DNA of 64,000 nt from the NCBI GenBank assembly GCA_027531565.1, contig JAPZSB010000006.1:129001-193000 (forward strand). Reading direction: 5' to 3'. The position numbers and the translations under genes are program-made. The stretch comes from Beijerinckiaceae bacterium (GTDB taxonomy: Bacteria; Pseudomonadota; Alphaproteobacteria; Rhizobiales; Beijerinckiaceae). Positions 30,262 to 51,297 of this stretch are shown in pieces (positions within the stretch are counted from its first letter, which is position 1; each line of letters opens with the position of its first letter). Under the pieces are notes generated by a model. That model had not been told where the DNA came from. It searched no databases and saw nothing but the letters and a program-made list of their open reading frames with translations.

Positions 30262-30351
30262 GGAGAGGTGGCAGAGTGGTCGATCGCGCCGCACTCGAAA
30301 TGCGGAGTACGTGCAAGCGTACCGGGGGTTCGAATCCCTCCCTCTCCGCCA
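30262..30351 (+). tRNA. tRNA-Ser (CGA anticodon)
   Basis: 90-nt tRNA including a coded CCA end. The acceptor stem GGAGAGG (30262-30268) pairs with CCTCTCC (30341-30347), then discriminator G and CCA. The anticodon loop CTCGAAA gives CGA (reads UCG). A long variable arm (AGTACGTGCAAGCGTACC) is the serine class II mark; GGTTCGAATCC is the T-arm. The 3' end points to a tyrosine recombinase 1 kb away, the classic setting of an integration site. Confidence 0.96.
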
Positions 30352-30663
30352 TTTTCTCTAACCAAACCATTGAAATAATTATATTTTCCCAAAGTATTCC
30401 TGCTTCAGCCCCACATCTGGCCCCACATCATCGCTGCGCTGCCCGGATCATCCAGCCCGAAATCAGGCTCAGCTTTCCTCGGCGCCTTTCGCGCAGAGAG
30501 CGCTTTCTGTTGAAAAGGCTGTGTTCGCCCGTCCGGCCCCGGCAATTTCAGTTGCTTCCGACGCAGGCTGTTGCAAATAGTCTCATCTAGGCTCAGCCGA
30601 GACGGCTGATGGATTTTTGATCGCGCATGATGTGCACAGGGACGGCAATGGCCGCAGTGCACC
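30352..30663. other. Left junction of the accessory region
   Basis: 312 bp between the tRNA 3' end and the first island gene, without a credible ORF. The base composition drops at once to AT-rich DNA (TTGAAATAATTATATTTTCCC near 30375), unlike the core genome. The short word GGCCCCACATC/AGCCCCACATC is repeated at about 30407-30428. A left attachment site should lie here at the tRNA end; I could not find its partner in the window. Confidence 0.45.
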
Positions 30664-31383
30664 ATGAGCGCTCGCAAATCACTCGAACTCCAGCTCGATC
30701 TCCTCGACCGCCTGCCTTCATCGGATCGTGGTGACGAGCTATCGTTTCCCGAGGGCGGCAACGCCGGAACGGATTGCGCGATCGGCGCCTCGGCTGGTTC
30801 CGGCCAACCCCCGTCATTGTCTGATCGGGCTAAGGCCAGTCCTGTTCCGGCCAAGACCAACGCGTGCATCAAACACGCGTTTGCTGGGCAGGACGCAATC
30901 GCTAATTGCCCGGTCGATACGCCTGAGCCTCCGATCCCGCCATCAACTGGCCTCGTGCCCCGCAAACGCGGCAGGCCTCGCGGGATCCGGAACAAGCGGA
31001 GCCTGGACAAATCGACAAGAAGCACTGCCCCGGGCCTCGTAGCTGATCAGGTCCAAACATGGACCAGGACAGGCGATGGCGGCGTGCCTTCTGTCAAATT
31101 CCTCAACGTGGTGGAAGTGGCTGCTCGCTATAGCATAAGCGTTTCCACGATCTGGCGTTGGCTGAAAACCAACCCGAATTTTCCAAAGCCAGTCCATCCG
31201 TCAAATGGCGCAACGCGGTGGCGCGTTGCCGATCTTGATGTCTTTGACGATACGCTGGGGGCCCATTATCGGCCACAAATCCCAGATGACATCTCTACAG
31301 CCGATCTGGCCGGTCAACCGAGGGCAAAGCCGTCCCAGCGGGCGTGGGATGGTGGAGGCACCCGAAAAAGACACGGGCGCTGA
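30664..31383 (+). CDS. AlpA-like helix-turn-helix protein (possible excisionase) with AT-hook-like motif
   Basis: 239-residue protein. The C-terminal part VKFLNVVEVAARYSISVSTIWRWLKTNPNFPKPVHPSNGATRWRVADLDVF (about 145-195) is an AlpA/MerR-type winged helix as in phage AlpA and recombination directionality factors. Residues near 100 read PRKRGRPRGIRNKR, an AT-hook-like minor-groove binding word. The N-terminal 90 residues are Ser/Pro/Ala-rich and look disordered. It ends 2 nt before the recombinase start, so it is probably a regulator or excision factor for that enzyme. Confidence 0.7.
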   Translation: MSARKSLELQLDLLDRLPSSDRGDELSFPEGGNAGTDCAIGASAGSGQPPSLSDRAKASPVPAKTNACIKHAFAGQDAIANCPVDTPEPPIPPSTGLVPRKRGRPRGIRNKRSLDKSTRSTAPGLVADQVQTWTRTGDGGVPSVKFLNVVEVAARYSISVSTIWRWLKTNPNFPKPVHPSNGATRWRVADLDVFDDTLGAHYRPQIPDDISTADLAGQPRAKPSQRAWDGGGTRKRHGR

Positions 31384-31385
31384 CC

Positions 31386-33011
31386 ATGGCGCGCTCGTAT
31401 CGCGGTATTCGCCCGAAACAGCACCATGTCTACAACTTTGCGCAGATGTTTCAGCTCTATGGGATCACGCGCAACACAGGCACCAACTGGCAGAAGGCTG
31501 GTCTGCGGGTGGTCGATGACGGCCACCCGCTCCTGGTAACAGGGGCCGAGTTGACCCGGTTCCACACGGAACGGAAATTCACCGGGCACCAGCCGCTCAA
31601 GACTGGGCAGTTCATATGCAGGCGCTGCGGAACCAGGGTCTATCCCGATATCGAGACGGTGTCGGTTCCTGAACTCGGGCGGCCCGAGCGTTTTGTGCGG
31701 GGCGTGTGTCCGGACTGCACGGGAACGGTCCTAAAACTCGTCAGCAGGACGACCTGCGAGGCCATTCTGGCTTGCCAGAATTCCAATACCCCCCTGCGGT
31801 CCCTAGACGAAGACGACTCCCCGAGCCCCGGCGGTATTGGGACTCACACGGAGGTAACCTGCATAACCTGGACGCCGGATAACGAGCGGGTGCTGTACCT
31901 GTATCTGAAGTTTCTTGGCCAGTTCCATGAACACACGGTTGACGCCATCATGGCCACGATCCGGAAGTTCGAGAGCTTCCACAAGGGCAAGCGCTTTGAC
32001 CGACTCAAGCCGGACGACGTCAGCGCCTGGCGCGACCACATCCTCAAGCGCGGATCGCCGGGATCGCCAATGGCTCTCAGCCGTTCGACGGTCCGTCATC
32101 ACGCATCTCATATGAAGCAATTCCTTGAGTGGCTCGTGAAGCAGGACGGTTACCGACGGCTCAACGCTAGTCTTGGTGATTATGTCAAACTGCCCAAGGG
32201 CCAAAGCGCTGCGCTGTTGCAACCCCAGCCTGATCCCTATCCGACAGCCCAGGAAGCAACCGCGATGGTAAAGGCCATGCCCGCGGATGATCGCGTCCAG
32301 CGGCGCGACCGCGCCATTGTTGCGACCGCCTTCCTCACGGGCTTGCGCGCCGGCTCGCTCGCCTCGATACGCTTCGGCGACATCGACCCGACCGAAAAGG
32401 CGGTTCGCGTCGATGCGCGTTTTATTCGTGCAAAGAACGGAAAGTCGCAGGAAACCGTCTGGTTTCCCGTCGGACCTGTGTTCGAAGACATTGTCACTGA
32501 CTGGCTGAAGGAGCTTGAAGCTCTTGGAGCCCGAGCCGATGACGCGCTGTTCCCGCCAAACGGAGCTCTTGTCAGTCGCCTTCGCATGACACGCCAGCTC
32601 GGGCAGCCCATCGCATGTTGGAAAACGGAAGACGGTATCGGCCGAGCATTCAGCATCGCCTGCGAGGCAGCCGGCGTTCAACCCTACACGCCGCATTCGG
32701 CACGCCATTTCCTCGTGGCACTGGGCAACGAGATCTGCAGAACCGAAGAGCATCGTGAAGCCTGGTCCAAGAACCTCGGCCACTCGAAGCGTCAGATTAC
32801 AGTCTCGCACTACGCCAAAATGACGCTGAATGAGCACAAATCGGTTATGGCCCGGCTACGCCTCGGCGATATCGAAACGGAAGATGAAAAAGACTTGCTG
32901 CTTGCCTTCCATGAACACAGACTTGTGCGCGGCTCTCAGGAATTTGAAATGGCTCAGCGTATTCATATCGCGCGACTAACGAGGTTCGAAAAATCCTCCA
33001 AAGACGGTTGA
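31386..33011 (+). CDS. Tyrosine recombinase/integrase with N-terminal zinc-ribbon-like region
   Basis: 541 residues. The C-terminal catalytic half has the Arg in FLTGLRAGSLASIRFGDI (about 320), HSARHFLVALGN (His-x-x-Arg, about 437-441) and LGHSKRQITVSHYAKM with the nucleophile Tyr (about 475). A SAM-like core-binding domain precedes it. The N-terminal 120 residues carry a helix-turn-helix-like stretch (YGITRNTGTNWQKAGL) and two CxxC pairs (ICRRCG and VCPDCTG), suggesting a metal-binding DNA reader. It lies beside tRNA-Ser and is the likely integrase of the accessory region. Start ATG 31386 is 2 nt after the AlpA-like gene. Confidence 0.85.
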   Translation: MARSYRGIRPKQHHVYNFAQMFQLYGITRNTGTNWQKAGLRVVDDGHPLLVTGAELTRFHTERKFTGHQPLKTGQFICRRCGTRVYPDIETVSVPELGRPERFVRGVCPDCTGTVLKLVSRTTCEAILACQNSNTPLRSLDEDDSPSPGGIGTHTEVTCITWTPDNERVLYLYLKFLGQFHEHTVDAIMATIRKFESFHKGKRFDRLKPDDVSAWRDHILKRGSPGSPMALSRSTVRHHASHMKQFLEWLVKQDGYRRLNASLGDYVKLPKGQSAALLQPQPDPYPTAQEATAMVKAMPADDRVQRRDRAIVATAFLTGLRAGSLASIRFGDIDPTEKAVRVDARFIRAKNGKSQETVWFPVGPVFEDIVTDWLKELEALGARADDALFPPNGALVSRLRMTRQLGQPIACWKTEDGIGRAFSIACEAAGVQPYTPHSARHFLVALGNEICRTEEHREAWSKNLGHSKRQITVSHYAKMTLNEHKSVMARLRLGDIETEDEKDLLLAFHEHRLVRGSQEFEMAQRIHIARLTRFEKSSKDG

Positions 33012-33280
33012 GTGCAAATAGATCTGTGGCCAACACCGTCGAAGCAGGCGTCTCACCGTGTGTGCCAGAAACGGTTTCAATTAGCGTTAAATTAGCTGAT
33101 CCTTACACATTGTTGGGGGTCTGGTATGGGGCCGGAAGCGGAACGGCAGGTCTCACCTTGTTGGGCAAAGATGGCGGACATTCCATCGATCAACATGAAT
33201 GTCTGTTCTGCACGATGAAACGGTTGTCCAGGGGGCGCAACGCAGAAATAAGTCAGGTCAGAGGCGAGGGATGGATAGAC

Positions 33281-35842
33281 CTATAACCTCGGATCCACCG
33301 GCTCGCTCTCCAATGCCAATACCCCGAAAGCACATTCGTGCACGCGCCGCAGCGGCTCCTTTGCCACGAAGCGCTCAAGCCCCTCTATGCCCAGCGCGAA
33401 CTCGCGGAGCGCGAGCGAACGTTTTGCATGCAGACCGCGCTTCCTCAGGCGCTCGAGGTTGGCGGCTGCATCGTAATCCGGGCCATAGATGATGCGCAGA
33501 TAGTCCCGTCCGCGGCATTTGACGGCGGGCTGGATGAGGCCCTTCGAACCGTTTGCAATGAAATCCATCGGCTTCACGACAATGCCTTCGCCGCCCTTGG
33601 CCGTCTTGTCCAGCCACCAGGCGATTGCTGCATCAGTGGATGCTGCGTCCGCCAGATCGACGATCTGCGTTTGCGTCGCCTGGAACAGCGGATCATGGCG
33701 CTCAAGCACTGCCAGCGTCTGCATATGCCAGTCATGCGGCTTGTCGTGATGAACGGCGCCTTCGCTCGCAAGAAGATGGAAGGGCGCGACTTTCACGCCG
33801 TCGAGGCCCGCTGTCGGCCAACAATACTGGCGGACAGCTGCGGCATAGCGTTCGCTGCGCGCAAGCTGCCCGGACAGCCGATCGCCAAGGTCGCCAACAT
33901 CAACGCCACGTTCAGCGGCTGCCGCAAACGCTGCCTTAGCTGCCGTGAGGCCGGCGCGTGCCGAGGCAGCGACAGGCCCATACTGCTGTTCGATCAGCGC
34001 CTGGGCCTTGGCGGACCAGGGCATGATCTCTGCATCGAGGCACAGCCAGTCGGTATTCAGCGTGTCAAACAGGCCCGCCTTTGATGCTGCTGCGGCGGAG
34101 CGCTCAAGGACCGCCCGCTCATGTGTGCGATCATTGAAGAAGGTGCGGCCAGTGCGCGTGTAGACCGTGCCGATCGCATCGCCTGTGACGCCGAAGCGTT
34201 TGCGCGCGGTTTCAGCATCACGGCAGACCACGATGACCGCGCGGGAGCCCATGTGCTTCTCCTCGCAGATCACCCTGGAGATGCCAAGCTTGCGGAAATA
34301 GTCCAGCGCCTCCCGCGGATGCTCCAGATAGCCGTCCTCCTTCGACGTCTCCGAGGGTGACATGGTCGGCGGCAGGTAGATCAGCCAGCGAGGATCCACC
34401 GCGAAGCGCGCCATCACCTCCAGCGCGGCGGCAGCGTTGCCCTCGCGGATCGTCACCGTGTTCCAGAGGCGTGTGTGGATGATGCGCTTGCCCATAACAT
34501 CGGCGAGGTCGAGCGCAGCGTCATTCTCCTGCTGCGCCGACAGCGCCGAGGCGGGCTTTGCGAGCGGCCTTATGGGCTCCGCATAGACGCGCCGCGCGGG
34601 CTCCGCCACCAGCTCCATCTCGGGATAGCGTAGCGCCGTCAGCCTGCCGCCGAAGACGCAGCCCGTGTCGAGGCAGATCGTGCCGTTAAGCCACTCCGCG
34701 TCGAGCACTGGCGTATGGCCGTAGACCACTCTGGTCTTGCCGCGATACTCGGCCGCCCAGTTGTGGCGCACCGGCAACCCGTACTCGTCGGTTTCGCCGG
34801 TTGTCTCGCCATACATGCAGAATTCGCGGATGCGGCCGGAGGCGCGGCCCTGCATCTGCTCCTTGATGCCGGCATGGGCGATTGCGAGCCGACCGGCGTC
34901 CAGCATGTAGTGGCTGACCAGCTTGCCGATGAAGCCCTTGACCCGCGCCTTGAAGGTTGGGCCGGCGGCGCCAATGTCATCTACCGTCGCCTGCAGGCCG
35001 TGGCTCATCTTCACGTCCTTGCCGGCAAGCCATTTCTCGACCTTGGCTTCGTGGTTGCCGATCACGCAGAAGGCTTGACTATCATCCACCATATCCATGA
35101 CGATGCGCAGGCTGTCGGCAACACGCGGACCACGATCAACAATGTCACCGACAAAAAGCGCCTTGCGGCCTTCAGGCGGTGTAACTTGGCATCGGCGATC
35201 GCCGTCCTGTTCCGTCCAGGCCAGCGCATATCCGAGCTTGCCGAGCAGTGCCTCCAGCTCGTCCGCGCAACCGTGAACATCGCCGATGATGTCGAATGGG
35301 CCGGTTTCATCTCGCTTGTCTGTCCAGAGCTTCTGGCGCGTGATGATGGCGCCGTCTATTGCGTCGAGCGACATCAACTGGTGGATTTCACGGAAGCCTT
35401 CGCGCTTCAGGCCGCCGAGGCCCTTGCGCAAGGCCATGCGGTGATTGCGCACGACATGCGGGCCGAACTGCCGGTCCGGCCGCAGTTTGTTGCGCTCAAG
35501 GCAGATGTCCTCGCCGGGGTCGATGACAATGGCGGCACAGAGCGCATCCCAGCGCTTGGCGATGGCGGTAAGCTTTGCCCGATCCTCGGCGCGCACATTC
35601 GTGGCGTCCACCACCGTCAGCAGGCGGCGGCGCATGCGGATCTCGATCAGATTATGTACAAGCTCGAAGGCATCCGCCGTTGCCTCAAGACTGTTTTCGT
35701 CATCGGCCACCAGCCCGCGCGCCCAATCGGACGAGACGATCTCGGTGGCCTTGAAGTGCTTCCTCGCGAAGGTCGACTTGCCAGAGCCGGAGGCGCCGAT
35801 AAGCAGCACGAGGCAGAATTCGGGGAGGGAAATGGAGCTCAT
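33281..35842 (-). CDS. pnkp: Polynucleotide kinase-phosphatase-ligase Pnkp (RNA repair)
   Basis: 853-residue three-domain RNA end-healing and sealing enzyme. Kinase: P-loop GASGSGKST (16-24), which phosphorylates 5'-OH ends. Metallophosphatase: GDVHGC (187-192), GDIVDRGP (232-239), GNHE (262-265), HAGI (323), GHTP (376) and DTG (392), removing 2',3'-cyclic and 3' phosphates; these positions agree with the numbering I recall for the Clostridium thermocellum enzyme. Ligase: nucleotidyl-lysine in EEKHMGSRAV (Lys about 529) and GEGIVVKP. Every catalytic motif is intact. The ATG overlaps the hen1 stop by 4 nt (ATGA); the longer upstream frame is only overlap with hen1. Confidence 0.95.
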   Translation of the reverse strand: MSSISLPEFCLVLLIGASGSGKSTFARKHFKATEIVSSDWARGLVADDENSLEATADAFELVHNLIEIRMRRRLLTVVDATNVRAEDRAKLTAIAKRWDALCAAIVIDPGEDICLERNKLRPDRQFGPHVVRNHRMALRKGLGGLKREGFREIHQLMSLDAIDGAIITRQKLWTDKRDETGPFDIIGDVHGCADELEALLGKLGYALAWTEQDGDRRCQVTPPEGRKALFVGDIVDRGPRVADSLRIVMDMVDDSQAFCVIGNHEAKVEKWLAGKDVKMSHGLQATVDDIGAAGPTFKARVKGFIGKLVSHYMLDAGRLAIAHAGIKEQMQGRASGRIREFCMYGETTGETDEYGLPVRHNWAAEYRGKTRVVYGHTPVLDAEWLNGTICLDTGCVFGGRLTALRYPEMELVAEPARRVYAEPIRPLAKPASALSAQQENDAALDLADVMGKRIIHTRLWNTVTIREGNAAAALEVMARFAVDPRWLIYLPPTMSPSETSKEDGYLEHPREALDYFRKLGISRVICEEKHMGSRAVIVVCRDAETARKRFGVTGDAIGTVYTRTGRTFFNDRTHERAVLERSAAAASKAGLFDTLNTDWLCLDAEIMPWSAKAQALIEQQYGPVAASARAGLTAAKAAFAAAAERGVDVGDLGDRLSGQLARSERYAAAVRQYCWPTAGLDGVKVAPFHLLASEGAVHHDKPHDWHMQTLAVLERHDPLFQATQTQIVDLADAASTDAAIAWWLDKTAKGGEGIVVKPMDFIANGSKGLIQPAVKCRGRDYLRIIYGPDYDAAANLERLRKRGLHAKRSLALREFALGIEGLERFVAKEPLRRVHECAFGVLALESEPVDPRL

Positions 35843-37227
35843 CGCGTGAACACCGCCATTTGCGACGGTGCCCCAAGCGCCTCGTCTACTGGTCCCAGCG
35901 GCTCCGTCACCCAGCCATAGCCATAGGCCTCGCCAATCCGCGCACACCACGCCGCAAATTCCGCCCGCGTCCATTCGAACCGGTGATCCGCATGGCGGAA
36001 CTGACCGGCGGGTAGCGTCGGAAACAGCGCGTTGTAATCGGCGTTCGGGGTCGTCACGATCACGGCCTTGGGCTGCGCGTCACCGAAGACCGCGCGCTCC
36101 AGATGGTCCAGCCGGTCCGGCTCTACATGTTCGATCACTTCGACCAGCGCAGCCGCATCAAAACCGCGCAGCCGTTGGTCCCGGTAGATCAGCGCACCCT
36201 GCAGAAGCTTGATGCGGGCGCGCTGCAGCTCCGGCAGGCGCTCCAGCTTCTCGTCCGCGCGGGCGAGGCTGACGCTCGATACTTCAACGCCCACGATCTC
36301 CTCGAACTGCTTGTCCGCGACCAGCCGGCGGATCAGCTTCGCCTCGCCGCAGCCGAGATCGAGCACACGCTTCGCGCCAAGGTCCTTCAGGCGCTGCGCG
36401 ACGGTGTCGAGGCGAAGGTCATGCAGCCGCAGAGGCTTCTCGATCGCCTCCTCGGCGGTGTCTTTCGGCGCGGCGTCGAGCGCGGTTTCTGATTCGCCTT
36501 CATCGCCGGCAAGCTGCACCAGCGCATCCTGCACCAGAGAGCGACGGCGCTTGAGATACCGGCTGACGATCAGTTCCTTCAGCGGATGATCGGCCAGCCA
36601 GCCCTCACCTTTGGCCATGAGCTTCTGCAGCTCGTCGTCGCCGACGAAATAGTGCTTCCGGTCGTCAAGGACCGGGATCAGCACATAGAGGTGGGTGAGC
36701 AGCGCCGACAGCCGCGTCGTGGCCTTGAGCGTCAGCGCCACATAGGGACTATCGCCCCAATCTGTCCGTACCTGATCAAGGGCGATAGGAGCGACGGTAA
36801 CCTCGTATCCTAACGGAGTGAAAAGATCGCTGACCAGGCCCGCGCCGCCTCGCGCCGGCAAAGGCGTCACATGAGCCTCCAGCGGGATCGCGGCATCTGC
36901 CAAATCCTGTCGATCCTTGCTCTGCCCGGCGATTGCCTCGCGCCAGGCACGACCCATGCCGACAGACAGAAAAGACGAAGCAGCATAGGGGCGATCATTG
37001 ACGTACTGGTCAATGAGGCCGCCAGCGTCGCCCTTGCCGCGAACCAGACCGACCGGGTCCACCTCCAGCACCAGGGCGGCCGTGCAACGCTCGTCCGATG
37101 CCTCGGGATAAAGCGTCAGCGCGCGGCCGAACGACAGTTCAGTTTCGTGCATCCGCGCTGGGTTCTTGCGGAGCAGAAAGCCGAGATCCGTTGCAGGGTA
37201 GTGTGTGGTTGTAACGGAGAGAAACAT
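35839..37227 (-). CDS. hen1: RNA 3'-terminal ribose 2'-O-methyltransferase Hen1 (bacterial)
   Basis: 462 residues. The N-terminal ~265 residues are the bacterial Hen1 domain that completes the Pnkp ligase site; the C-terminal methyltransferase has the SAM motif VLDLGCGE (288-295) and the metal site EVIEH (Glu363, Glu366, His367) with FRHADH (His412). It methylates the 2'-OH at the cleavage site before sealing, so that a ribotoxin cannot cut the repaired RNA again. It is coupled to pnkp by a 4-nt overlap; the two proteins form a heterotetramer in the known system. Confidence 0.95.
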   Translation of the reverse strand: MFLSVTTTHYPATDLGFLLRKNPARMHETELSFGRALTLYPEASDERCTAALVLEVDPVGLVRGKGDAGGLIDQYVNDRPYAASSFLSVGMGRAWREAIAGQSKDRQDLADAAIPLEAHVTPLPARGGAGLVSDLFTPLGYEVTVAPIALDQVRTDWGDSPYVALTLKATTRLSALLTHLYVLIPVLDDRKHYFVGDDELQKLMAKGEGWLADHPLKELIVSRYLKRRRSLVQDALVQLAGDEGESETALDAAPKDTAEEAIEKPLRLHDLRLDTVAQRLKDLGAKRVLDLGCGEAKLIRRLVADKQFEEIVGVEVSSVSLARADEKLERLPELQRARIKLLQGALIYRDQRLRGFDAAALVEVIEHVEPDRLDHLERAVFGDAQPKAVIVTTPNADYNALFPTLPAGQFRHADHRFEWTRAEFAAWCARIGEAYGYGWVTEPLGPVDEALGAPSQMAVFTR

Positions 37228-37472
37228 AAACCGGAGGACTTCGCTTCATCGGAGTAGATCAGTTAGAACGTTTCCTGAGGCCATACAACGCGCCCGCCTA
37301 TTGCGGGATTAACGGTCTTATTCAGTAATTGTTTTTCGCCAACCGAAGCGGCCGCAGCGTGGCGCAACCAAGAAAGATTTCGTTTGCTCGCGAGTGTCTG
37401 CTCTTGGGTTGCGGCCAGGAATCTTGAACGACCGAAAAGCGGGCACATGGCGGTCATTTCCGATGGCGTGGT

Positions 37473-38090
37473 TTACCCGCGCCGCCGGAAATGACCGCCT
37501 TCGTAGATGCGGACGGGATTACCACGCTCGATGGCAATTTTTGCCAGCCAGTCCCGGAAACGCGCCGCATCCCGGCTTCGCTCGTGTACCGCGCCCAGCA
37601 ACGCCTTGATGCGCTCGACCGCAAGAGCCTTGTTCCGATGCTGTGAGCGCTCGTCGCGCGCGATCACGCTGAGGCCGGTCGGAACATGGATCACGCGCAC
37701 CGCACTTTCGGTTCGGTTCTGATGCTGCCCGCCTGGGCCGCCAGCGCGCATGGTCTCGAAGCGGAGTTCGTTCGCGGCAATCTCCGGTGCCCGCACAGGC
37801 GGATCAATCCGCCGAACCGCGATGAACCAGTTCTTCCGCTTGTGGCCGGGACGAACGTCGCTACGTGCGATCCACTGGATCGTTCCAACCCAGGAGCGGC
37901 AGAAGACGTCACAGCCTTCCCCCGCGATGGTCAACAGCACCGAACCGGAATTCCGGTCAGGTGCCTCTTCGCCGAATGTCAAACCGGCTGCTTCCGCTTC
38001 GCTCCGGATGGCGTCGATGACATGTTCGACCGCGAGGCGGCATTCGGCGGGGCCTCGCCCCGCCGTCACACAAAGAAGGATCTCGCTCAT
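37473..38090 (-). CDS. prfH: Peptide chain release factor homologue PrfH
   Basis: 205-residue class I release-factor homologue. RAGGPGGQHQNRTESAVRVIHVPTGL carries the catalytic GGQ (120-122) that hydrolyses peptidyl-tRNA. It lacks the long N-terminal domain and the stop-codon recognition motifs (PxT/SPF) of RF1/RF2, as expected for RF-H. PrfH is known to release peptide from ribosomes whose decoding centre has been cut, so that RtcB can seal the 16S rRNA. The ATG overlaps the rtcB stop by 4 nt. Confidence 0.93.
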   Translation of the reverse strand: MSEILLCVTAGRGPAECRLAVEHVIDAIRSEAEAAGLTFGEEAPDRNSGSVLLTIAGEGCDVFCRSWVGTIQWIARSDVRPGHKRKNWFIAVRRIDPPVRAPEIAANELRFETMRAGGPGGQHQNRTESAVRVIHVPTGLSVIARDERSQHRNKALAVERIKALLGAVHERSRDAARFRDWLAKIAIERGNPVRIYEGGHFRRRG

Positions 38091-39265
38091 CGCCGGCCCC
38101 TCCAGCCCCTGCGCGGCTCAATCCGACGGCTCTCCCGGGCCGTCTTGAACGTCAACAGCGGACGGAGGATAGCCACAACCCGCACAAGGTTCATCGCTTC
38201 AAGATCGGCAACGACCTTGTGAATGTCCTTGTAGGCATCAGGGGCTTCCTCGATCAGCAATTGTCGATCCGAGCAGATCACCCGGCCCCCGAAGGCGTTG
38301 CGCGCAAGCCGCTCAAGATCGCCCGGTGACGTGCGGACGCGCTTCTCCATCGAGCCGCGGTCATGTTTGCGCCCAGCGCCGTGGGCAATGGAGCGAAGAG
38401 CCTCCGGCGGTGCTTCAAGGGGTGCCACCAGATACGTCACAGCACCACGCGAGCCGGGCACAGGGACAAGGCCCCGATCCGATGGCGCCGCCCCCTTGCG
38501 ATGGAGGATGCGGGCTCCTTTCCGCTCCGCTAGGTTATGCGGGGCGTCGAGCCGGAGAACTCCCTCCGTCCGGAGGGCCGCCATTGCCCGCTCAGCAATG
38601 ATCTGCCGGTTCAGGCGCGCATAGGCGAGCGCCCGATCATGATCCGCAAGATAGGCAAGGCCACCTTCCTCAAGCGGAAGCCCATCCGTTCCGGCATGAT
38701 AATGTTGCGCCAGGACGGCCGCACCAAATCCGCGCGAGCCGGAATGGACCAGCAGGCCAAGTGCGCCCATTTCAAGCCCGGCTGCCGAAGCCGCATCCGC
38801 ATCAACGATCTCGGCGACGGCCTGCACTTCACTGAAATGGTTGCCTCCGCCAATGGTACCGAGCGCCCCGGCATAAGGGCTGACAGCAACACCTTCTGCG
38901 GAGAGCCCTGCCTCCTCCAGGCGCGCTTCGGCATGCCCGCTCCACGGCCCCTCGAGCGCCATGAGGCGTTCAGCGGCCTTGTCGAGACGCAGCTTGCGCT
39001 CCGGCAGATCCAGCGACCAGAATTGCATGCCACACCCGATATCGGTGCCAATGATATCGGCATGCACGATGCTTTCAGCCTCGGCGGCACAGCCAACCGG
39101 ACCATGATGGCCGGGATGCAGATCCGGCATGCCAGCCACCGCGCATATGCCTCGGCGATTGGCGAGTTGTTCGAGCTGCCGCACGGCAGCATCCTCGATC
39201 CACGCGGTGGATGAGGCAAAGAGGTGGATGCGCGACGAAGCGCCCACCAGACGGGGATTGCCCAT
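38087..39265 (-). CDS. rtcB: RNA ligase RtcB (PrfH-associated type)
   Basis: 392-residue 3'-phosphate/5'-OH RNA ligase. Metal and GTP sites are visible: MPDLHPGHHGPVG, GTDIGCGM (Cys78), GGGNHF (His143), LVHSGSRGFG (His174), APHN (243-244) and the guanylylated His in IAHGAGR (His295). It is shorter than housekeeping RtcB, as for the class paired with prfH. It joins broken tRNA or rRNA in one step after GTP activation. The C-terminal tail is Arg-rich (ESRRIEPRRGWRGRR). No rtcR regulator or rtcA is adjacent. Confidence 0.93.
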   Translation of the reverse strand: MGNPRLVGASSRIHLFASSTAWIEDAAVRQLEQLANRRGICAVAGMPDLHPGHHGPVGCAAEAESIVHADIIGTDIGCGMQFWSLDLPERKLRLDKAAERLMALEGPWSGHAEARLEEAGLSAEGVAVSPYAGALGTIGGGNHFSEVQAVAEIVDADAASAAGLEMGALGLLVHSGSRGFGAAVLAQHYHAGTDGLPLEEGGLAYLADHDRALAYARLNRQIIAERAMAALRTEGVLRLDAPHNLAERKGARILHRKGAAPSDRGLVPVPGSRGAVTYLVAPLEAPPEALRSIAHGAGRKHDRGSMEKRVRTSPGDLERLARNAFGGRVICSDRQLLIEEAPDAYKDIHKVVADLEAMNLVRVVAILRPLLTFKTARESRRIEPRRGWRGRR

Positions 39266-39721
39266 TGCAAAAAATCCGAAAAGAGCCGCCGTGCTCAGGC
39301 AGGCAGCAGAAAGCGTTCGCCGTTTCCGGCTTCCGAGGTGGTCAGATGTCGGCCCTGACCGGGCTGCAGCTCATCATCGTCATGGCTGTTCCCTCACGCT
39401 TCTTGTGCAAGACACGAGGCTTGCATCATATGAAGTCGAATAGCGGCCACTCCCTGCTTTGGCTAGTGCGCAAAGGTCACAGTGTTGCCGGATTGTCGAT
39501 CGCGCCCGAAGTGCGATGCAGTCATGTTTTAGGTGTCGAACGTCCGGTGTCGGAGCCAAACGATGAGGGCGTCAGCGACCGCGATGGGGGCGCGAAGCAG
39601 AACTCGGCTCGCGTGACTGTTATTGTGCACAAGGATCGCAAACAGGTTTCTTGGTTGCGGTCCAAAAGAAAACGCGTTTTCATATATTGAAAGCGATCGC
39701 TCACTAATATATATAGACCAC
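39266..39721. other. Divergent promoter region of rtcB-prfH and the TetR regulator
   Basis: 456 bp with no gene that I accept. The right end carries two perfect palindromes before the TetR gene (listed separately). The left part should hold the rtcB promoter; I looked for a -24/-12 sigma-54 site, since E. coli rtcB uses one, and did not find it. Open frames over 39211-39690 show no recognisable protein and may be a decayed gene. Confidence 0.45.
39668..39701. promoter_or_regulatory. Two perfect palindromes before the TetR gene
   Basis: GAAAACGCGTTTTC (39668-39681) and AGCGATCGCT (39692-39701) are exact dyads, 10 bp apart, directly upstream of an AT-rich TAATATATATAG stretch and of the TetR start (39722). 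They are the best candidates for autoregulatory operators of this TetR protein. Confidence 0.55.
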
Positions 39722-40376: not shown

Positions 40377-42695
40377 ATGAATAAGTCCTCATTTATAAAA
40401 ATAAAAAGCCCGTTCTGGGCCTCTGTCGCCACTGGAGCCGGTTCTACCTTCGTGAGCGGAACCGTGACCATGGCGGTAACATGGTCGCTTCTCTCGGGCG
40501 GGGTGAGTGCGGCCTATGCCGGCTTAGCCGCGGCCTGCCTTGCCCTTCCGGTCTCGCTCGGCATGTTTGTCGGTGGCCGGTTGATTGATCGCATAGGAGC
40601 GAGGCCGGTTCTGTTGGCCTCCAACCTGCTGACACTGGGCGCGGCCTTGGCTGCCATGTGGGTCATCACCACACGGTCGGAGGCCCTCGTGGCCATCATC
40701 GCACTGCTGGCGGTTTCTAACGGGCTCGGCGCGCCGGGGGTGGTCGCGCAAGATGCACGCATGCCACAACTGGCGAGGATAGCGGGCCTGAGGCTGGAGC
40801 AGGCGAACGGCCTACGTGACCTTGCCAACCAGCTCGGCACGATCGGAGGCCCGGCATTGGGTGTACTCGCTGTTGAGCTCACCGGATTGGCAGGCGCTCT
40901 CGGTGTGTCATTGGTGATGCTCACCATCATTGCCTTGATCGATGCCCGGTTCTTCCCTCGCTTTCGTGACATCCGGCGAGCGGCGACCTCAAACACCAAG
41001 GATCCGTTGAAGCGGATCCTGAGCGATCGTTCGCTCCGTGCGGTGGTGCTCCTCGCCTTACCGATGGTCGCGATCTTTACGTCACTCGACGAGATTCTCG
41101 CGCCAACCTTGGCCCTTTCCGCCGGGCTGGGCGGTATGGCGCTGACTATCTTCCTGGCATTGACCGGCGTTTCGGCCTTCTCCTCGGCTGCCGCATTTGC
41201 CAGCGCCGGCCACAGGATAGCGAAACGAACAATCGTGATTGGCGGCATGGCTATCTCTGCCATGGGCTTTATCGGGCTTGCCGCCCTGCCGTCGCGCGAG
41301 AGCTTTTTCATCGCCCCGGTGCTGATCGGCTGCGGCATCGGCCCGTTATGGCCGGTCATGCTCACAGCCATCCAGTCCCGCGTGCCGCGTGCCGAGCTTG
41401 GGGGCGTGATCGGCGCGCTCGCCGCCGTGGCGCTATTGGCGCAGCCGGCCTCCTCCTTGACGACCGGGCCAGCGGTCGCGTCCCTTGGGGCCGAGACGGT
41501 CGCATGGGTGATCGCGCTGATCGCGGGCAGCCTCGCCTTGCTTGCGCCCCTTCTCGGAGGGCTTCGTGAACTCGATACACCTGCCTCCCAGCATAAAACC
41601 TTGCCGCTTGGTGCCGGCTATCGGCCGAGGTTAATCGCCGTTGCGCTGTCGGCAGCCGGTGCTCTTTGGTTCGGGTATCAGCATGTTTCGGGCACGGTCG
41701 TCCGACATACGGACCCATCCATCGTCGCATCCGCGCATGCGACCCAGACGGTCACGGGAATCGGCGCGCTCGGTCGCATTGAGCCTGCATCGCGGATCCT
41801 CAGGATCAGCGCGCCACTCGGCGCCGAGCCGCCGCGCATTGAACGCGTTTATGTGCGTGCCGGCGATACCGTTTTGGCCGGACAGGTCATGGCGGTCATG
41901 GCTGATCACTCCATTCGAACCGCGGCTGTCGCGACCGCGGAGGCGCACGTGAGGGTCGCAGAAGCGGAACTCGCCCGCATCCGGGCTGGCGCGCGTCCCT
42001 CGGAACGTGCGGCACAGCGGGCGCGGATCGAAGCTTTGGTGGCACAGGTCCAGTTGGCCCGCATGACGCTCGACCGCCGCGTGGCGCTCATGCGGTCTGA
42101 CGCTGCCTCCGCCGCGCAGTTTGACGATGCCAACGCCACGCTGTCGCGCTTGGTGGCGGAACTCGCGGCCGCCGAAGCGGTCTATGAGACTTTGGCGGAT
42201 GCCAGGGCTGAGGATGTCGCCGTGTCCGAGGCTACGCTCGGCCGGGCGCGCGCCGACCTCGCCCAACGGCGCGCCGAACTCGAACTGAGCCAGATCCGCG
42301 CGCCGATGGACGGCACTGTTCTGGTCGTGAATGCCCGCGAAGGCGAGCGTGCCGGGTCGGATGGTTTGCTCTCCCTCGCAGACCTCCGTGCCATGGAAGT
42401 CGTCGCCGAGATCTATGAGAGCGACGCACCCCGCCTGCGCATCGGCCTAGGAGCCGAGGTGCTTCTACCGGGCATCGAGGCGCCGCTCTCGGCTCATGTC
42501 AGCGAGATTGGCTGGCTCGTGCGCCGAAACGATGCGATCGGCACAGATCCTGTGGCCCGTATCGATGCACGCGTCATCGAGGTGCGCCTGCGCCTCTCAC
42601 CAGAGGTGAGCGATCGGGTCACGCGGCTTTCCAATATGCAGGTTGCGGTACGCATCCATACCGACGAGAAGCCCGCAGTCTCGGGACCGCGATAA
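40377..42695 (+). CDS. Fusion of an MFS transporter and a HlyD/DevB-type membrane-fusion protein
   Basis: 772 residues in one uninterrupted frame. Residues 1-395 are a 12-helix MFS domain (VTMAVTWSLL, GGRLIDRIGARPVL motif A, NGLRDLANQLGTIGGPALGV, and the second half from about 210). Residues 415-438 (RLIAVALSAAGALWFGYQHVSG) are one extra membrane helix. Residues 440-772 are a periplasmic adaptor: GIGALGRIEPASRIL, a coiled-coil hairpin (about 515-640) and the lipoyl-like LSQIRAPMDGTVLVVNAREGERAG. The next gene (DevC-like) starts in the stop codon. Adaptors in this operon position are normally separate DevB proteins; here the adaptor is welded to an MFS pump. Confidence 0.85.
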   Translation: MNKSSFIKIKSPFWASVATGAGSTFVSGTVTMAVTWSLLSGGVSAAYAGLAAACLALPVSLGMFVGGRLIDRIGARPVLLASNLLTLGAALAAMWVITTRSEALVAIIALLAVSNGLGAPGVVAQDARMPQLARIAGLRLEQANGLRDLANQLGTIGGPALGVLAVELTGLAGALGVSLVMLTIIALIDARFFPRFRDIRRAATSNTKDPLKRILSDRSLRAVVLLALPMVAIFTSLDEILAPTLALSAGLGGMALTIFLALTGVSAFSSAAAFASAGHRIAKRTIVIGGMAISAMGFIGLAALPSRESFFIAPVLIGCGIGPLWPVMLTAIQSRVPRAELGGVIGALAAVALLAQPASSLTTGPAVASLGAETVAWVIALIAGSLALLAPLLGGLRELDTPASQHKTLPLGAGYRPRLIAVALSAAGALWFGYQHVSGTVVRHTDPSIVASAHATQTVTGIGALGRIEPASRILRISAPLGAEPPRIERVYVRAGDTVLAGQVMAVMADHSIRTAAVATAEAHVRVAEAELARIRAGARPSERAAQRARIEALVAQVQLARMTLDRRVALMRSDAASAAQFDDANATLSRLVAELAAAEAVYETLADARAEDVAVSEATLGRARADLAQRRAELELSQIRAPMDGTVLVVNAREGERAGSDGLLSLADLRAMEVVAEIYESDAPRLRIGLGAEVLLPGIEAPLSAHVSEIGWLVRRNDAIGTDPVARIDARVIEVRLRLSPEVSDRVTRLSNMQVAVRIHTDEKPAVSGPR

Positions 42696-43855
42696 TGCGC
42701 TCTATTTGGCTCGCATCCCGCCTTGCTTGGCGACAACTGACCCACCAGCCGGCGCGGCTTGCGAGCGCCGTGGCCGGCGTGGTCTTTGCCTGCCTGCTTG
42801 TTTTCATGCAGCTGGGCTTCCACGACGCCCTTTTCGACAGCGCGACCTCGACCGCCCGGGCGATCCGTGGCGACATCATCATGTTCAGTCGCCAGTCCGA
42901 GACGACCTCGCGAACCTCCGGCTTGCCTCGCGCCCGGCTGATGCAGGCGCTTGCCGATCCGGATGTCGCCCGCGTGACGCCCATTTATCTGGGCCAGGTC
43001 ATCTGGAAGAACCCGGAAACGGCTGTACGCCGCTCCATCATGGTTTTGGGGGCAGACCCTGATTCAGGGGTATTCGCGCTCGAAGGCGCCAGTGCGGCTG
43101 CCGAGCGATTGCGCCAGCGCGATACGCTGCTCTTCGATGCGCAATCCCGGCCCGAATACGGTCCGATCGGGGAGCGCTTGGCCCGCGGTGCAACGACGGT
43201 TGAGGTTGCCAACCGCACCACGGAAGTGGTGGGTCTTTTCCGGCTCGGAGCCTCCTTCGCGGCCGACGGCAACCTGCTCACGAGCGACGTCAATTTTCAT
43301 CGGCTGGTGCGCGACCGGATGCCGGACATGGTCGATGTGGGGGCTGTGTTCCTCAAGGCTGGCGCGGATGTGAGTGCGGCTAAAACGCGGCTTCAGCGGC
43401 TGCTTCCTGATGATGTCCGGGTGATGACCCGCGATGAGTTCATTGCGAACGAGCGTGCCTATTGGGCGAACTCGGCCGCCATTGGCTTCATCTTTCTCTT
43501 CGGCGTTGGTATGGGCCTGATTGTGGGCTTTGTGATTGTCTATCAGATCCTTTTCACGGATGTCGCCAACCACCTGTCCGAATACGCGACGCTAAAGGCG
43601 ATGGGCTACTCGGATCATTATCTGCTCGCCGTGGTCTTCAGCGAAGCCCTGATGCTCGCTGCGCTCGGCTTCGTGCCCGGCCTTGCCCTCTCATGGTGGC
43701 TGTTCGATGTCTCGGCTGATGCGACCTTCCTGCCAATGTTGCTGCGGCCGGACATGGCGGCTTTCGTCTTCGTGCTGATTTTCGCGATGTGCGCCGCATC
43801 CGGAGCGGTTGCCGTTCGGAAGCTGCGCGACGCCAACCCTGCCGATATGTTCTGA
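42695..43855 (+). CDS. DevC-like ABC exporter permease
   Basis: 386-residue FtsX/MacB-type permease. One N-terminal helix (ASAVAGVVFACLLVFMQLGFHDALFDSATS), a large periplasmic domain, and three C-terminal helices (IGFIFLFGVGMGLIVGFVIVYQILFTDVANHLSEYATLKAMGYSD..., LAVVFSEALMLAALGFVPGLALSWWLF, MAAFVFVLIFAMCAASGAVAVRKL) match DevC. Its ATG shares an A with the upstream TAA. It works with the DevA-like ATPase and the adaptor part of the fusion to export a hydrophobic or lipid substrate, not identified. Confidence 0.87.
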   Translation: MRSIWLASRLAWRQLTHQPARLASAVAGVVFACLLVFMQLGFHDALFDSATSTARAIRGDIIMFSRQSETTSRTSGLPRARLMQALADPDVARVTPIYLGQVIWKNPETAVRRSIMVLGADPDSGVFALEGASAAAERLRQRDTLLFDAQSRPEYGPIGERLARGATTVEVANRTTEVVGLFRLGASFAADGNLLTSDVNFHRLVRDRMPDMVDVGAVFLKAGADVSAAKTRLQRLLPDDVRVMTRDEFIANERAYWANSAAIGFIFLFGVGMGLIVGFVIVYQILFTDVANHLSEYATLKAMGYSDHYLLAVVFSEALMLAALGFVPGLALSWWLFDVSADATFLPMLLRPDMAAFVFVLIFAMCAASGAVAVRKLRDANPADMF

Positions 43856-43865
43856 GAGTTGCGCC

Positions 43866-44561
43866 ATGATGCCTGCCATCGAGATCAAGGGCCTGGAACA
43901 TTGGTTCGGCAAAGGCGAACTCCGGCGACAGATCCTGTTCGACATCGATCTCTCGACTGCACCGGGGGAGATCGTCATCCTCACAGGCCCATCCGGCTCC
44001 GGGAAGACGACGCTGCTGACCCTGATTGGTGCCCTTAGAGCAGTGGAGCAAGGAAGCCTCCGCCTATTCGGACGTGAGCTGCGTGGCGCCAGCGATGATG
44101 ACCGCATCGCGGTGCGCCGCCGCATCGGCTTCATATTCCAGCAGCACAACCTCCTAGGTTTCCTTTCAGCCCGTCAGAATGTCGAGATGGCCCTTGAACT
44201 TGATCCTACAATTGACGCCGGCGAACGCCGGAGCCTTGCGTCCGTTATGCTTGCCAAGGTCGGGCTGGGTGAGCGGCTTGATCACCCACCATCGAAACTG
44301 TCCGGCGGGCAGAAGCAGCGCGTGGCCGTTGCCCGTGCACTGGTCGGCAATCCCGACCTCGTGCTGGCCGACGAGCCGACCGCCTCGCTCGACAAGGTCA
44401 CCGGGCAAGAGGTGGCTACGCTCATCGAGCGTCTCGCCCGAGAACGTGGTGCCTCGATCCTGCTTGTGACGCATGATCCACGCATCCTCGGGATAGCGGA
44501 CCGCATAATCGCCATGGAAGACGGTCGCATCGTGAATGCCGCCGAAAATCCGTGTGATTGA
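43866..44561 (+). CDS. DevA-like ABC exporter ATPase
   Basis: 231-residue ATPase. Walker A GPSGSGKTT (about 41-49), Q-loop IGFIFQQHNLL, signature KLSGGQKQRVAVARAL, Walker B LVLADEPTASLD and switch His VTHDPRIL are intact; the order and wording are MacB/LolD/DevA-type. Start ATG 43866, 10 nt after the permease stop; ATG 43869 is equally possible. Last gene of the exporter operon; a 14-bp palindrome follows. Confidence 0.92.
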   Translation: MMPAIEIKGLEHWFGKGELRRQILFDIDLSTAPGEIVILTGPSGSGKTTLLTLIGALRAVEQGSLRLFGRELRGASDDDRIAVRRRIGFIFQQHNLLGFLSARQNVEMALELDPTIDAGERRSLASVMLAKVGLGERLDHPPSKLSGGQKQRVAVARALVGNPDLVLADEPTASLDKVTGQEVATLIERLARERGASILLVTHDPRILGIADRIIAMEDGRIVNAAENPCD

Positions 44562-45475: not shown

Positions 45476-46030
45476 ATGAAGACGTTCAATCTTGCTTTCC
45501 CCGGATTGCTGGTCGTCAGTTGGCTGGCGCTGGCAACAGGTGCTTCGGCCCAGCATCAGGGGCACCATCAAAACCCGCAGCACTCGCCTTATTCCGGGTT
45601 TGAAACCCGGTCGATCAAGGCGTTATCGGAAGCTCAGATCGCTGATCTCAAGGCAGGGCGTGGAATGGGCCTCGCGTTGGCGGCCGAGCTCAACGGTTAT
45701 CCTGGTCCGATGCATGTGCTGGAACTGGCGGACAAGCTTGGACTGACGCCTGATCAGCGCATCCGCATGCAGGATTTGGTCGATGCGATGAAGCAGGAGA
45801 CCATTGGGATCGGCGAAGACGTCATCATGGCGGAGCGAGCTCTTGACAGTCTTTTTTCCGAAAACCGTGCCGATGCCGCATCCTTGGCGTCAGCGGTGAA
45901 AACGGTAGCGGAGGCACAAGGCCGGCTGCGCCAAGCCCACTTGCGATACCATCTCGAAACGAAAGCCGCGCTTAGCCCCGAACAGATCAGGGATTACGCG
46001 CGGCTTCGGGGCTACACGAAGAACCCGTGA
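45476..46030 (+). CDS. Periplasmic Spy/CpxP-like (heavy-metal sensor/chaperone) protein
   Basis: 184 residues. Signal peptide MKTFNLAFPGLLVVSWLALATGASAQ, then a His-rich start (HQGHHQNPQHS), then the helical LTPDQRIRMQDLVDAMKQETIGIGEDVIMAERALDSLF...HLRYHLETKAALSPEQIRDYARLRGY pattern of the LTxxQ/Spy family. Such proteins bind metal or unfolded proteins in the periplasm. GGAGG precedes the ATG. It is convergent with the copper ATPase gene, 10 nt apart, and probably serves copper stress. Confidence 0.8.
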   Translation: MKTFNLAFPGLLVVSWLALATGASAQHQGHHQNPQHSPYSGFETRSIKALSEAQIADLKAGRGMGLALAAELNGYPGPMHVLELADKLGLTPDQRIRMQDLVDAMKQETIGIGEDVIMAERALDSLFSENRADAASLASAVKTVAEAQGRLRQAHLRYHLETKAALSPEQIRDYARLRGYTKNP

Positions 46031-46040
46031 CGCGTTCGCT

Positions 46041-48458: not shown

Positions 48459-48509
48459 ATGATTCTCCTGTAATCGAATTCGGAAAAGACGTTCTTGAAA
48501 CCAGTCAGC

Positions 48510-48533
48510 ACCTTCCCATAATGGGAAGGTCAA
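48510..48533 (-). promoter_or_regulatory. CueR/MerR-type operator-promoter of copA
   Basis: ACCTTCCC (48510-48517) and GGGAAGGT (48523-48530) form a perfect dyad around ATAAT. On the minus strand TTGACC (from 48533) is a -35 element running into the dyad, the typical MerR-family layout with a long spacer that the activator twists to allow transcription. It lies 52 bp before the copA start and 24 bp before cueR. Confidence 0.85.
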
Positions 48534-48556
48534 GGACAAAAATGGGAGGCATCCGG

Positions 48557-48943
48557 ATGCAGATCGGAACCGCCGCCAAAGCCAGTGGCGTCTCTGCGAA
48601 AATGATCCGGCATTACGAAGCCATTGGGCTCATCCAGTCCGGCGCCCGACAGACAAACGGATATCGCGACTATGAGTCCCGCGATGTCCACGAGTTGCGC
48701 TTCATTCGCAGCGCGCGCGATCTCGGGTTCTCGCTGGATGAAATCAGGACGCTCCTGGATCTATGGCGCAACAAAGGTCGAAGCAGTCGCGACGTTCATC
48801 AACTGGCATCGAGGCATCTCTCCGATATCGAGCGAAAGATCGTCGAATTACAGGCGATGGCAGCAACGCTTCGAGAGCTGCTCCATGCCTGCAAGGGCGA
48901 TTCTCGGCCCGATTGCCCGATTCTTGACGGGATTGGCAGATAG
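48557..48943 (+). CDS. cueR: CueR-like MerR-family copper regulator
   Basis: 128 residues. [69 protein letters not shown] is the MerR winged helix; the C-terminal [16 protein letters not shown] has the two metal-binding Cys (C-x7-C) with the CPIL wording of CueR. GGGAGG is 7 nt before ATG 48557. It should activate copA when Cu(I) binds. Confidence 0.92.
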
Positions 48944-48963
48944 ACGGCGAAAATTATCCCAAA

Positions 48964-49676: not shown

Positions 49677-49694
49677 TCTCCTTCATGGATGAAG

Positions 49695-51197: not shown

Positions 51198-51297
51198 GGA
51201 GACCTCCTCAGTCCGGCTTCTCAAATGAGTGCCTGAGCTTAGGCCAGCAGCTCGATAATGTATTTGATCTATCGCACGGAAATTATTGCAGAATATT

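What the first reader, a model, noticed from the sequence alone, without database searches (positions are those of the whole stretch)
33281..39265. Two complete RNA-repair systems side by side: rtcB-prfH and hen1-pnkp
Four consecutive minus-strand genes encode both known bacterial ways to mend nuclease-cut RNA. RtcB with PrfH seals rRNA/tRNA after ribosome rescue. Pnkp with Hen1 heals both ends, seals, and adds a 2'-O-methyl mark that blocks a second cut. Each pair overlaps by ATGA, and all catalytic motifs that I could check are intact. Sitting in a tRNA-flanked accessory region, the block looks like an immunity module against ribotoxins or phage-triggered anticodon/rRNA nucleases. The two pairs could act in series: PrfH clears the ribosome, RtcB mends, and Hen1/Pnkp gives nuclease-proof repair. 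Each pair is known; I do not know whether this joint locus has been described as one system.
Basis: partly seen in the sequence, partly recalled or inferred. Interest (0 to 1): 0.85.

Follow-up and report, generated by a model that had tools for sequence, protein, structure and literature searches.

The report
RtcB2-PrfH and Hen1-Pnkp repair genes together
A bacterial chromosome carries two known kits for mending cut RNA side by side, and comparison with other genomes shows that such kits have been brought together several separate times, which suggests they work as a team but does not prove it.

Summary
Four minus-strand genes, rtcB2-prfH and hen1-pnkp, lie at 33281-39265, each pair overlapping by ATGA, with the recalled catalytic motifs present. 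They sit in ~27 kb of variable DNA that begins at a tRNA-Ser with a tyrosine recombinase.

They are two separately moving cassettes. hen1-pnkp alone recurs at 85% nucleotide identity in another family, rtcB2-prfH alone in two congeners. No other of 17 genus genomes holds both.

The union still recurs: in a Skermanella plasmid and a Micavibrio genome. Some RtcB lies near Hen1-Pnkp in 9 of 112 other Pnkp loci examined, needing nine gains or losses on a Pnkp tree. A congener has rtcR beside ro, YrlA-like RNA, rtcB, rtcA, hen1, pnkp. In the order, 10 of 12 Pnkp genomes have RtcB, against 52 of 335 others.

Best reading: parallel, complementary repair routes; the proposed series is chemically unlikely. 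The exact four-gene union is rare. New variant of a known kind; the key review could not be read.

The parts
33281..35842 (-). pnkp: polynucleotide kinase-phosphatase-ligase, 853 aa
   Evidence: TIGR04075 1348.7 bits; Pfam kinase-type AAA, phosphoesterase and ligase domains; motifs; matches solved Pnkp domains
35839..37227 (-). hen1: 3'-terminal RNA ribose 2'-O-methyltransferase, 462 aa, overlaps pnkp by ATGA
   Evidence: TIGR04074 658 bits; Hen1_L N-terminal half 339.9 bits; solved homologues
37228..37472 (-). 245-bp gap between the two cassettes; the cassette junction lies between 37229 and about 37423-37457
   Evidence: cassette limits by blastn to relatives; no terminator-like site, no inverted repeat
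37473..38090 (-). prfH: release factor H, GGQ present, 205 aa
   Evidence: TIGR03072 212.6 bits; best solved matches are PrfH, 9mor and 7sa4
38087..39265 (-). rtcB2: PrfH-associated RtcB-family RNA ligase, 392 aa, overlaps prfH by ATGA
   Evidence: NF007153 411.6 and TIGR03073 344.3 bits; the only RtcB place found in this genome
39266..39598 (-). region upstream of rtcB2 carried with the rtcB2-prfH cassette in two congeners; presumed promoter region
   Evidence: about 85% identity to G788 up to 39561 and to G789 up to 39598
30262..30351 (+). tRNA-Ser(CGA), left edge of the variable block
   Evidence: ARAGORN; homology to four congeners stops at 30351-30353
31344..33011 (+). tyrosine recombinase, candidate integrase
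   Evidence: Phage_integrase PF00589 41.9 bits; XerC-like but far below that model's cut-off

Best explanation
The locus is an accessory RNA-repair island assembled from two mobile cassettes, rtcB2-prfH and hen1-pnkp, that serve the same need by different chemistry and act in parallel. PrfH clears a ribosome stalled by a cut in 16S rRNA, and RtcB2 reseals the 2',3'-cyclic-phosphate/5'-OH break. Pnkp and Hen1 deal with other breaks, chiefly cut tRNAs: Pnkp removes the 3' phosphate and phosphorylates the 5' end, Hen1 methylates the 3'-terminal 2'-OH, and Pnkp seals. hen1-pnkp probably rides on transcription from upstream of rtcB2. Shown here: gene identity, motifs, cassette limits, repeated joining of Hen1-Pnkp with RtcB ligases, and genome-level co-occurrence. 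Known from papers for relatives: the two chemistries, and the protection of RtcB2-PrfH against colicin E3 but not E5 or D. Inferred: co-transcription, the division of labour in this organism, and selection for the joint state.
For: Four-gene block with intact motifs. The four-gene union recurs in Skermanella rosea pSR-1 with the pairs in the other order (RtcB 45.6% and Pnkp 59.7% identical) and in Micavibrio UBA1672 in the same order: 2 of 112 other Pnkp loci against a rough 0.011 expected. RtcB of any type lies in the flanks of 8 of 97 Pnkp loci, against 0.36 expected at one copy per 4 Mb, P 4.6e-9, and of 1 of 15 plasmid loci. The adjacency needs nine changes (gains or losses) on the Pnkp tree. 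In 9 of the 10 joint loci, the window included, RtcB is on the strand of hen1-pnkp, P 0.011. RtcB is in 10 of 12 Pnkp genomes against 52 of 335 others, P 8.6e-7. In congener G082 hen1 starts 6 bp after rtcA. RtcB2-PrfH protected E. coli against colicin E3 but not E5 or D (PMC9223846). Methylated repair made RNA resist colicin D in the related Pnkp1-Rnl-Hen1 complex (PMC4411300).
Against: 0 of 20 other PrfH loci of the order and class samples hold hen1 or pnkp, and 103 of 112 other Pnkp loci have no RtcB in the fetched flank. The 245-bp gap is long for one operon and no shared regulator is seen; the genome has no RtcR. In G106 the 88%-identical Pnkp has no RtcB in its 20-kb fetched stretch, although that genome has two RtcB genes elsewhere. 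PrfH-Pnkp genome co-occurrence is marginal. Islands gather unrelated genes, and no profile-based survey of generic defence genes was made as a control.
Confidence: 0.6

Rival explanations
1. Coincidental stacking: both pairs are mobile counter-toxin genes that collect in the same islands and plasmids, with no functional tie.
For: Separate relatives and sharp cassette ends; variable block at a tRNA; each pair is usually alone; Skermanella's copy lies next to an AAA plus PD-(D/E)XK nuclease pair and transposases.
Against: RtcB is the most recurrent neighbour family of Pnkp after Hen1 and RlaP among 1109 ORFs of 80 loci (6 loci); the next family, which I read as SDR oxidoreductases, is at 4 loci (a blastp clustering, which splits diverse families). 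Genomes holding Pnkp are enriched in RtcB even without the three genomes where they touch, 7 of 9 against 52 of 335, P 8.6e-5. Operon-like joins: 6 bp between rtcB and hen1 in L092 and between rtcA and hen1 in L159.
Confidence: 0.25
2. Shared damage sensing is the reason for linkage: RtcR-type sensing of 2',3'-cyclic-phosphate tRNA fragments switches on both ligase routes; the window's version has lost or replaced the sensor.
For: rtcR beside ro, YrlA-like RNA, rtcB, rtcA, hen1, pnkp in G082 and, with rlaP, in G289; rtcR with hen1-pnkp in L080. [quoted passage not shown]
Against: Only 3 of the 8 RtcB-linked loci among the 97 have RtcR; the window genome has none; the sigma-54 pattern scan gave no site in either promoter region.
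Confidence: 0.1
3. Series pathway: PrfH clears the ribosome, RtcB mends, then Hen1/Pnkp adds nuclease-proof repair.
For: Gene adjacency only.
Against: RtcB seals the strand, so no 3' end is left for Hen1 and no ends for Pnkp (RtcB chemistry as described in PMC9223846 introduction; Pnkp-Hen1 route in PMC4411300 passages). Only PrfH before either ligase is a possible series.
Confidence: 0.05

Closest known systems
Bacterial Pnkp-Hen1 RNA repair complex (passages of PMC4411300)
   Same: Same two families in one operon, with all catalytic motifs that I recalled
   Different: 'rtcb' has 0 occurrences in that paper; here a second ligase of another superfamily sits upstream
RtcB2-PrfH module of E. 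coli ATCC25922 (PMC9223846: abstract and sections 3 and 8)
   Same: Same two families as a gene pair described as an operon
   Different: Sections seen describe the pair alone; here Hen1-Pnkp follows
RFH-RtcB neighbourhoods with accretions (passages of PMC6514570)
   Same: Known tendency of the pair to gather further genes (TPR, a Pol-beta nucleotidyltransferase, ZnR proteins)
   Different: Hen1-Pnkp is not among the accretions in the passages seen; 'pnkp' has 0 hits in the main text and 'hen1' 0; its supplementary list was not seen
rsr-yrlBA-rtcBA operon under RtcR (passages of PMC7790460)
   Same: Congener G082 and G289 carry ro, YrlA-like RNA, rtcB, rtcA and rtcR
   Different: In G082 and G289 hen1 and pnkp are added downstream of rtcA; 'hen1' has 0 hits in that paper; the window has none of ro, rtcA or rtcR beside its pairs
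RNA repair systems reviewed by Burroughs and Aravind 2016 (recalled only; not held)
   Same: Recalled: modular, shuffled systems of ligases, end-modifying enzymes, methylases and scaffolds
   Different: Whether it already lists loci with both ligase superfamilies could not be checked

Membership tests
Bacterial Pnkp-Hen1 repair system | Tripartite Pnkp with kinase, phosphatase and ligase domains | tested here: met
Bacterial Pnkp-Hen1 repair system | hen1 in the same operon, with N-terminal ligase-activating half and methyltransferase half | tested here: met
   Hen1_L 339.9 bits, methyltransferase domain, ATGA overlap; transcription itself not tested
Bacterial Pnkp-Hen1 repair system | Repairs toxin-cut RNA with a 2'-O-methyl mark | not testable with these tools
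   Needs biochemistry
RtcB2-PrfH module | RtcB of the PrfH-associated family over curated cut-off | tested here: met
   NF007153 411.6 against 407; TIGR03073 344.3 against 271.8
RtcB2-PrfH module | prfH over cut-off, GGQ motif, directly downstream | tested here: met
   212.6 against 166.65; GGQ at residue 120 and ATGA overlap
RtcB2-PrfH module | Protection from 16S rRNA cleavage | not testable with these tools
   Shown for E. coli in PMC9223846, not for this organism
RtcR-controlled rtcBA operon | RtcA and RtcR with RtcB | tested here: not met
   No RtcR in the genome; no RtcA among the window proteins scanned (the whole genome was not searched for RtcA); both present in congener G082
Integrative element at a tRNA gene | Tyrosine recombinase beside a tRNA and loss of synteny at the tRNA 3' end | tested here: met
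Integrative element at a tRNA gene | Direct repeat of the tRNA end at the far boundary | tested here: not met
   No exact copy of the last 12 bases in the window plus 17 kb; so it is called a variable block, not an intact element
Listed anti-phage defence system (PADLOC) | Match of the four proteins to a PADLOC model | tested here: not met
   Only a weak match of Hen1 to a methyltransferase-bearing model, 25.2 bits

The most novel reading that the evidence does not exclude
Hen1-Pnkp is in many bacteria one half of a dual-ligase RNA-repair response whose other half is an RtcB: a scarless route and a marking route kept together. In the fullest form (rtcR beside ro, Y RNA, rtcB, rtcA, hen1, pnkp, in the window's own congener) one damage sensor drives both, and three modules (RtcR/Ro/RtcBA, RtcB2-PrfH, Hen1-Pnkp with or without RlaP) are swapped pairwise among genomes. 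The window is the form in which RtcB2-PrfH stands in for the Rtc operon.
Probability: 0.35. Interest if true: 0.75.

Novelty: new variant of a known kind. Interest (0 to 1): 0.57.

Why it matters
Why some bacteria keep two chemically different RNA ligases, and which breaks each mends in a cell, is to my knowledge open. Loci that hold both, above all the rtcR, ro, Y RNA-like, rtcBA, hen1, pnkp set in a congener, make that testable: one likely inducer, two competing sealing routes, and a mark (2'-O-methyl) that tells which route mended a given break.

Tried and rejected
Tried without result: a terminator, promoter or structured element in the 245-bp gap. Sigma-54-type pattern scan: 5 sites in the window against 3.75 expected, none in either promoter region; a degenerate scan of L159 gave 21 against 18.4 expected. 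Rfam in window 30350-57300: nothing at E 0.5. PADLOC on 9 proteins: weak matches only, of Hen1 and of the small ORF at 30664. Viral contigs: 49 loci, of which only L107 and L108 hold most or all of Pnkp (L109 holds its ligase part); neither L107 nor L108 has RtcB or PrfH. RtcB or release-factor-like hits in viral loci L111, L119, L120, L126, L134 and L138 lie beside matches to the phosphatase part alone and were not counted.

Considered and rejected: the serial RtcB then Hen1/Pnkp scheme (see rivals); a fixed four-gene system (each pair has its own relatives). Six minus-strand ORFs that clustered lie where hen1 should be and look like antisense shadows of it; they were not counted as a neighbour family. 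For the tree 100 loci were offered (80 genome contigs, 16 of the 17 fetched, 3 of the 15 plasmid loci, the window); 98 were kept, L170 and L171 falling out as too short.

Not done: structure prediction and fold search, a PADLOC scan of all neighbour ORFs (cap), a search of the whole genome for RtcA, plasmid hits H16 and H17, and the flank of PrfH genome G144.
Full report
OBSERVATION. The four genes are real, complete and on the minus strand: rtcB2 38087-39265, prfH 37473-38090, hen1 35839-37227, pnkp 33281-35842. The listed pnkp ORF runs from 35974, but the family match starts at residue 47, so ATG 35842 is the likely start. Both pair junctions read ATGA, and motifs that I recalled as catalytic are present: Pnkp P-loop, phosphatase motifs and EKHMGSR; Hen1 LDLGCG, EVIEH and HADH; PrfH GGQ; RtcB DIGCGM, GNHF, HSGSRG and HGAGR. 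This RtcB is the only one found in the genome.

SURROUNDINGS. A tRNA-Ser(CGA) lies at 30262-30351, followed by a tyrosine recombinase. Homology to congeners G787, G788, G789 and G287 stops at the tRNA 3' end. A block at 86-87% to G787 and G788 begins at about 57264, so about 27 kb is variable. In those relatives the tRNA and that block lie on different contigs, so no simple empty site was seen. The variable part also holds a TetR gene, genes that I read from their translations as an efflux block (40377-44561), and a copper/metal block. No exact copy of the last 12 bases of the tRNA was found in the window plus 17 kb, so I do not call it an intact element. The order is probably Hyphomicrobiales: one genome of the order sample has a contig of the same length (294401) and the same Pnkp position as Methylobrevis albus; that this genus belongs to that order is recalled.

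TWO CASSETTES. blastn to G106, of another family, covers 33280-37229 at 84.8%, that is, hen1-pnkp and nothing else of the 18 kb compared. blastn to congeners G788 and G789 covers 37423-39561 at 85.0% and 37457-39598 at 84.6%, that is, rtcB2-prfH plus about 300 bp upstream of rtcB2. The join therefore lies inside the 245-bp gap. In the genus, PrfH is in 3 of 17 genomes, Pnkp in 2 of 17, RtcB in 7 of 17 and RtcR in 5 of 17; only the window's genome has both pairs.

HOW OFTEN THE PAIRS MEET. In the order sample Pnkp is over cut-off in 13 of 397 genomes and PrfH in 18 of 397, both in 3; in G087 and G120 they lie on different contigs. That is 0.59 expected, P 0.017; without the window's genome 2 against 0.52, P 0.089. 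G283, with Pnkp pieces on two contigs, was not counted as Pnkp-positive. In the class sample it is 7 and 5 of 385, both in 1, the window's own. Of the 21 other PrfH genomes of the two samples I fetched flanks of 20 (not G144); some flanks are cut by contig ends; 0 of 20 hold hen1 or pnkp. So the exact union is rare. It does recur. In Skermanella rosea plasmid pSR-1 hen1-pnkp, two small genes, then rtcB2-prfH lie on one strand, with a small gene on the other strand between. In Micavibrio UBA1672 (L102) rtcB2-prfH, a PcfJ-like gene, hen1, an ORF and pnkp lie in the window's order on one strand. Among 112 Pnkp loci other than the window, 2 have PrfH nearby against a rough 0.011 expected (it pools the two samples' PrfH rates and assumes 4.5-Mb genomes).

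RtcB OF ANY TYPE. RtcB lies in the fetched flank of 6 of 80, 2 of 17 and 1 of 15; 103 of 112 have none. For the 97 non-plasmid loci the flanks total 1.42 Mb; at one RtcB per 4 Mb 0.36 are expected and 8 seen, P 4.6e-9, and P 8.6e-7 at two copies. In the order RtcB occurs in only 62 of 347 genomes. As a rough internal control, release factors related to PrfH (RF1 and RF2; two per genome, recalled) gave one hit besides the true PrfH in the same 97 loci (L165). In the 80 loci RtcB was the most recurrent neighbour family after Hen1 and the nucleotidyltransferase RlaP. On a FastTree of 98 Pnkp rows the adjacency needs 9 changes, gains or losses, all forced by well-supported branches; the RtcB2-PrfH type needs 3; the label is no more clustered than in shuffles. 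RtcB is on the strand of hen1-pnkp in 9 of 10 joint loci, the window included; in L080 it is divergent.

GENOME LEVEL. The 347-genome RtcB sample appears, from the handles listed, to be G000-G346. Within it 10 of 12 Pnkp genomes have RtcB (not G036 or G050) against 52 of 335 others, P 8.6e-7; without the three genomes where they touch, 7 of 9, P 8.6e-5. Relatedness, genome size and contamination were not corrected for.

THE CONGENER. In G082 (L159) rtcR, on the other strand, stands beside ro, rtcB, rtcA, hen1 and pnkp on one strand, hen1 starting 6 bp after rtcA. RtcR scores 278.7 bits, RtcA 254, RtcB 104.8; the Ro60 vWA domain scores 63 bits, while its TROVE domain is just under cut-off and the whole-protein Rsr model scores 83.8 against a cut-off of 900. 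Between ro and rtcB two stretches match YrlA Y RNA at 44.3 and 32.3 bits (E 1.5e-8 and 4.4e-5), below its gathering score of 69. The first overlaps matches to tmRNA (39.7 bits against 47, E 2.3e-14) and tRNA (30.0 against 29), while ARAGORN finds neither. A tRNA-like domain is, as I recall, part of YrlA, so I read a Y RNA, but this is not settled. G289 (L158) has the same set plus RlaP, with a YrlA-like stretch of 35.5 bits. Acidobacterial L080 has rtcR, rtcBA, hen1, two RlaP and pnkp, with rtcBA divergent. The third pairing exists too: Shinella pShin-02 has rtcR, a gene 60% identical to that Ro, rtcB, rtcB2, prfH, and a Novosphingobium plasmid has rtcB2-prfH near rtcR, ro, rtcBA. G788 and G789 carry rtcR-ro-rtcBA 15-20 kb from rtcB2-prfH. 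So three modules are joined pairwise; I saw no locus with all three.

MECHANISM. RtcB takes 2',3'-cyclic phosphate and 5'-OH and leaves a sealed strand (PMC9223846 introduction). Pnkp-Hen1 must first remove that phosphate, then methylate and seal (PMC4411300 passages). The two are thus alternatives at any one break, not steps in a row; only PrfH can precede either. RtcB2-PrfH protected E. coli from colicin E3 but not from the tRNA toxins E5 and D, while methylated repair by the related Pnkp1-Rnl-Hen1 complex resisted colicin D. Division of labour between rRNA and tRNA damage is therefore my best reading; co-transcription and benefit are inferred.

NOVELTY. Six searches of the held library (listed 20 of 30, 20 of 34, 20 of 45, 11 of 11, 0 of 0 and 4 of 4) list no title or abstract start about Hen1-Pnkp joined to RtcB; no held paper has both 'Hen1' and 'RtcR'. 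Passages on Hen1 or Pnkp in PMC3973293, PMC6777427 and PMC6277466 are analogy, introduction or references. The library lacks most subscription papers and the review most likely to hold this, Burroughs and Aravind 2016. PMC6514570 describes accretions to RFH-RtcB and names no Hen1-Pnkp in the passages seen. PMC7824862 notes that jumbo phages combine RtcB and ATP-grasp ligases (passages). I therefore rate this a new variant of a known kind.

Noticed in passing
L159:226-10548 (congener G082), L158:8739-19939 (G289): rtcR beside ro, YrlA-like RNA, rtcB, rtcA, (rlaP), hen1, pnkp: a composite RNA-repair set, perhaps more interesting than the window's own block.
   Followed up: partly
L223:2263-9768 (Shinella pShin-02), L222:8001-17082 (Novosphingobium plasmid): RtcB2-PrfH joined to an RtcR/Ro/RtcB(A) operon, giving two RtcB genes in one locus.
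   Followed up: partly
97 Pnkp loci: The nucleotidyltransferase RlaP lies beside Hen1-Pnkp in 23 of 97 loci (two of them weak hits), sometimes as two tandem copies (L080, and plasmid loci L210, L211).
   Followed up: partly
window 57118-57214: A stretch of about 95 bp at the right edge of the variable block is multi-copy in congeners G787 and G789, with copies a few kb apart on some contigs; nature unknown.
   Followed up: no
window 45476-51858: Copper/metal block (P-type ATPase with HMBD and YHS domains, metal-resistance and DUF411 proteins, cytochrome b561) with about 76% identical copies elsewhere in congeners.
   Followed up: partly
L182:9298-11505 (G150): In another genus rtcB2-prfH also sits about 400 bp from a sequence 84% identical to the window's tRNA-Ser.
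   Followed up: no
L023:6705-9645 (Skermanella pSR-1): Directly downstream of prfH: an AAA ATPase and a PDDEXK_7/DUF2357 protein, which I read as McrBC-like.
   Followed up: partly
L160 (G120:C115) and G283 (C32, C62): G120 Pnkp has one in-frame stop in the match, and G283 has Pnkp pieces on two contigs; possibly decaying copies or assembly faults.
   Followed up: no
window 37430-37448 and 53596-53614: A 19-nt near-repeat (89%), one copy in the gap between prfH and hen1.
   Followed up: no
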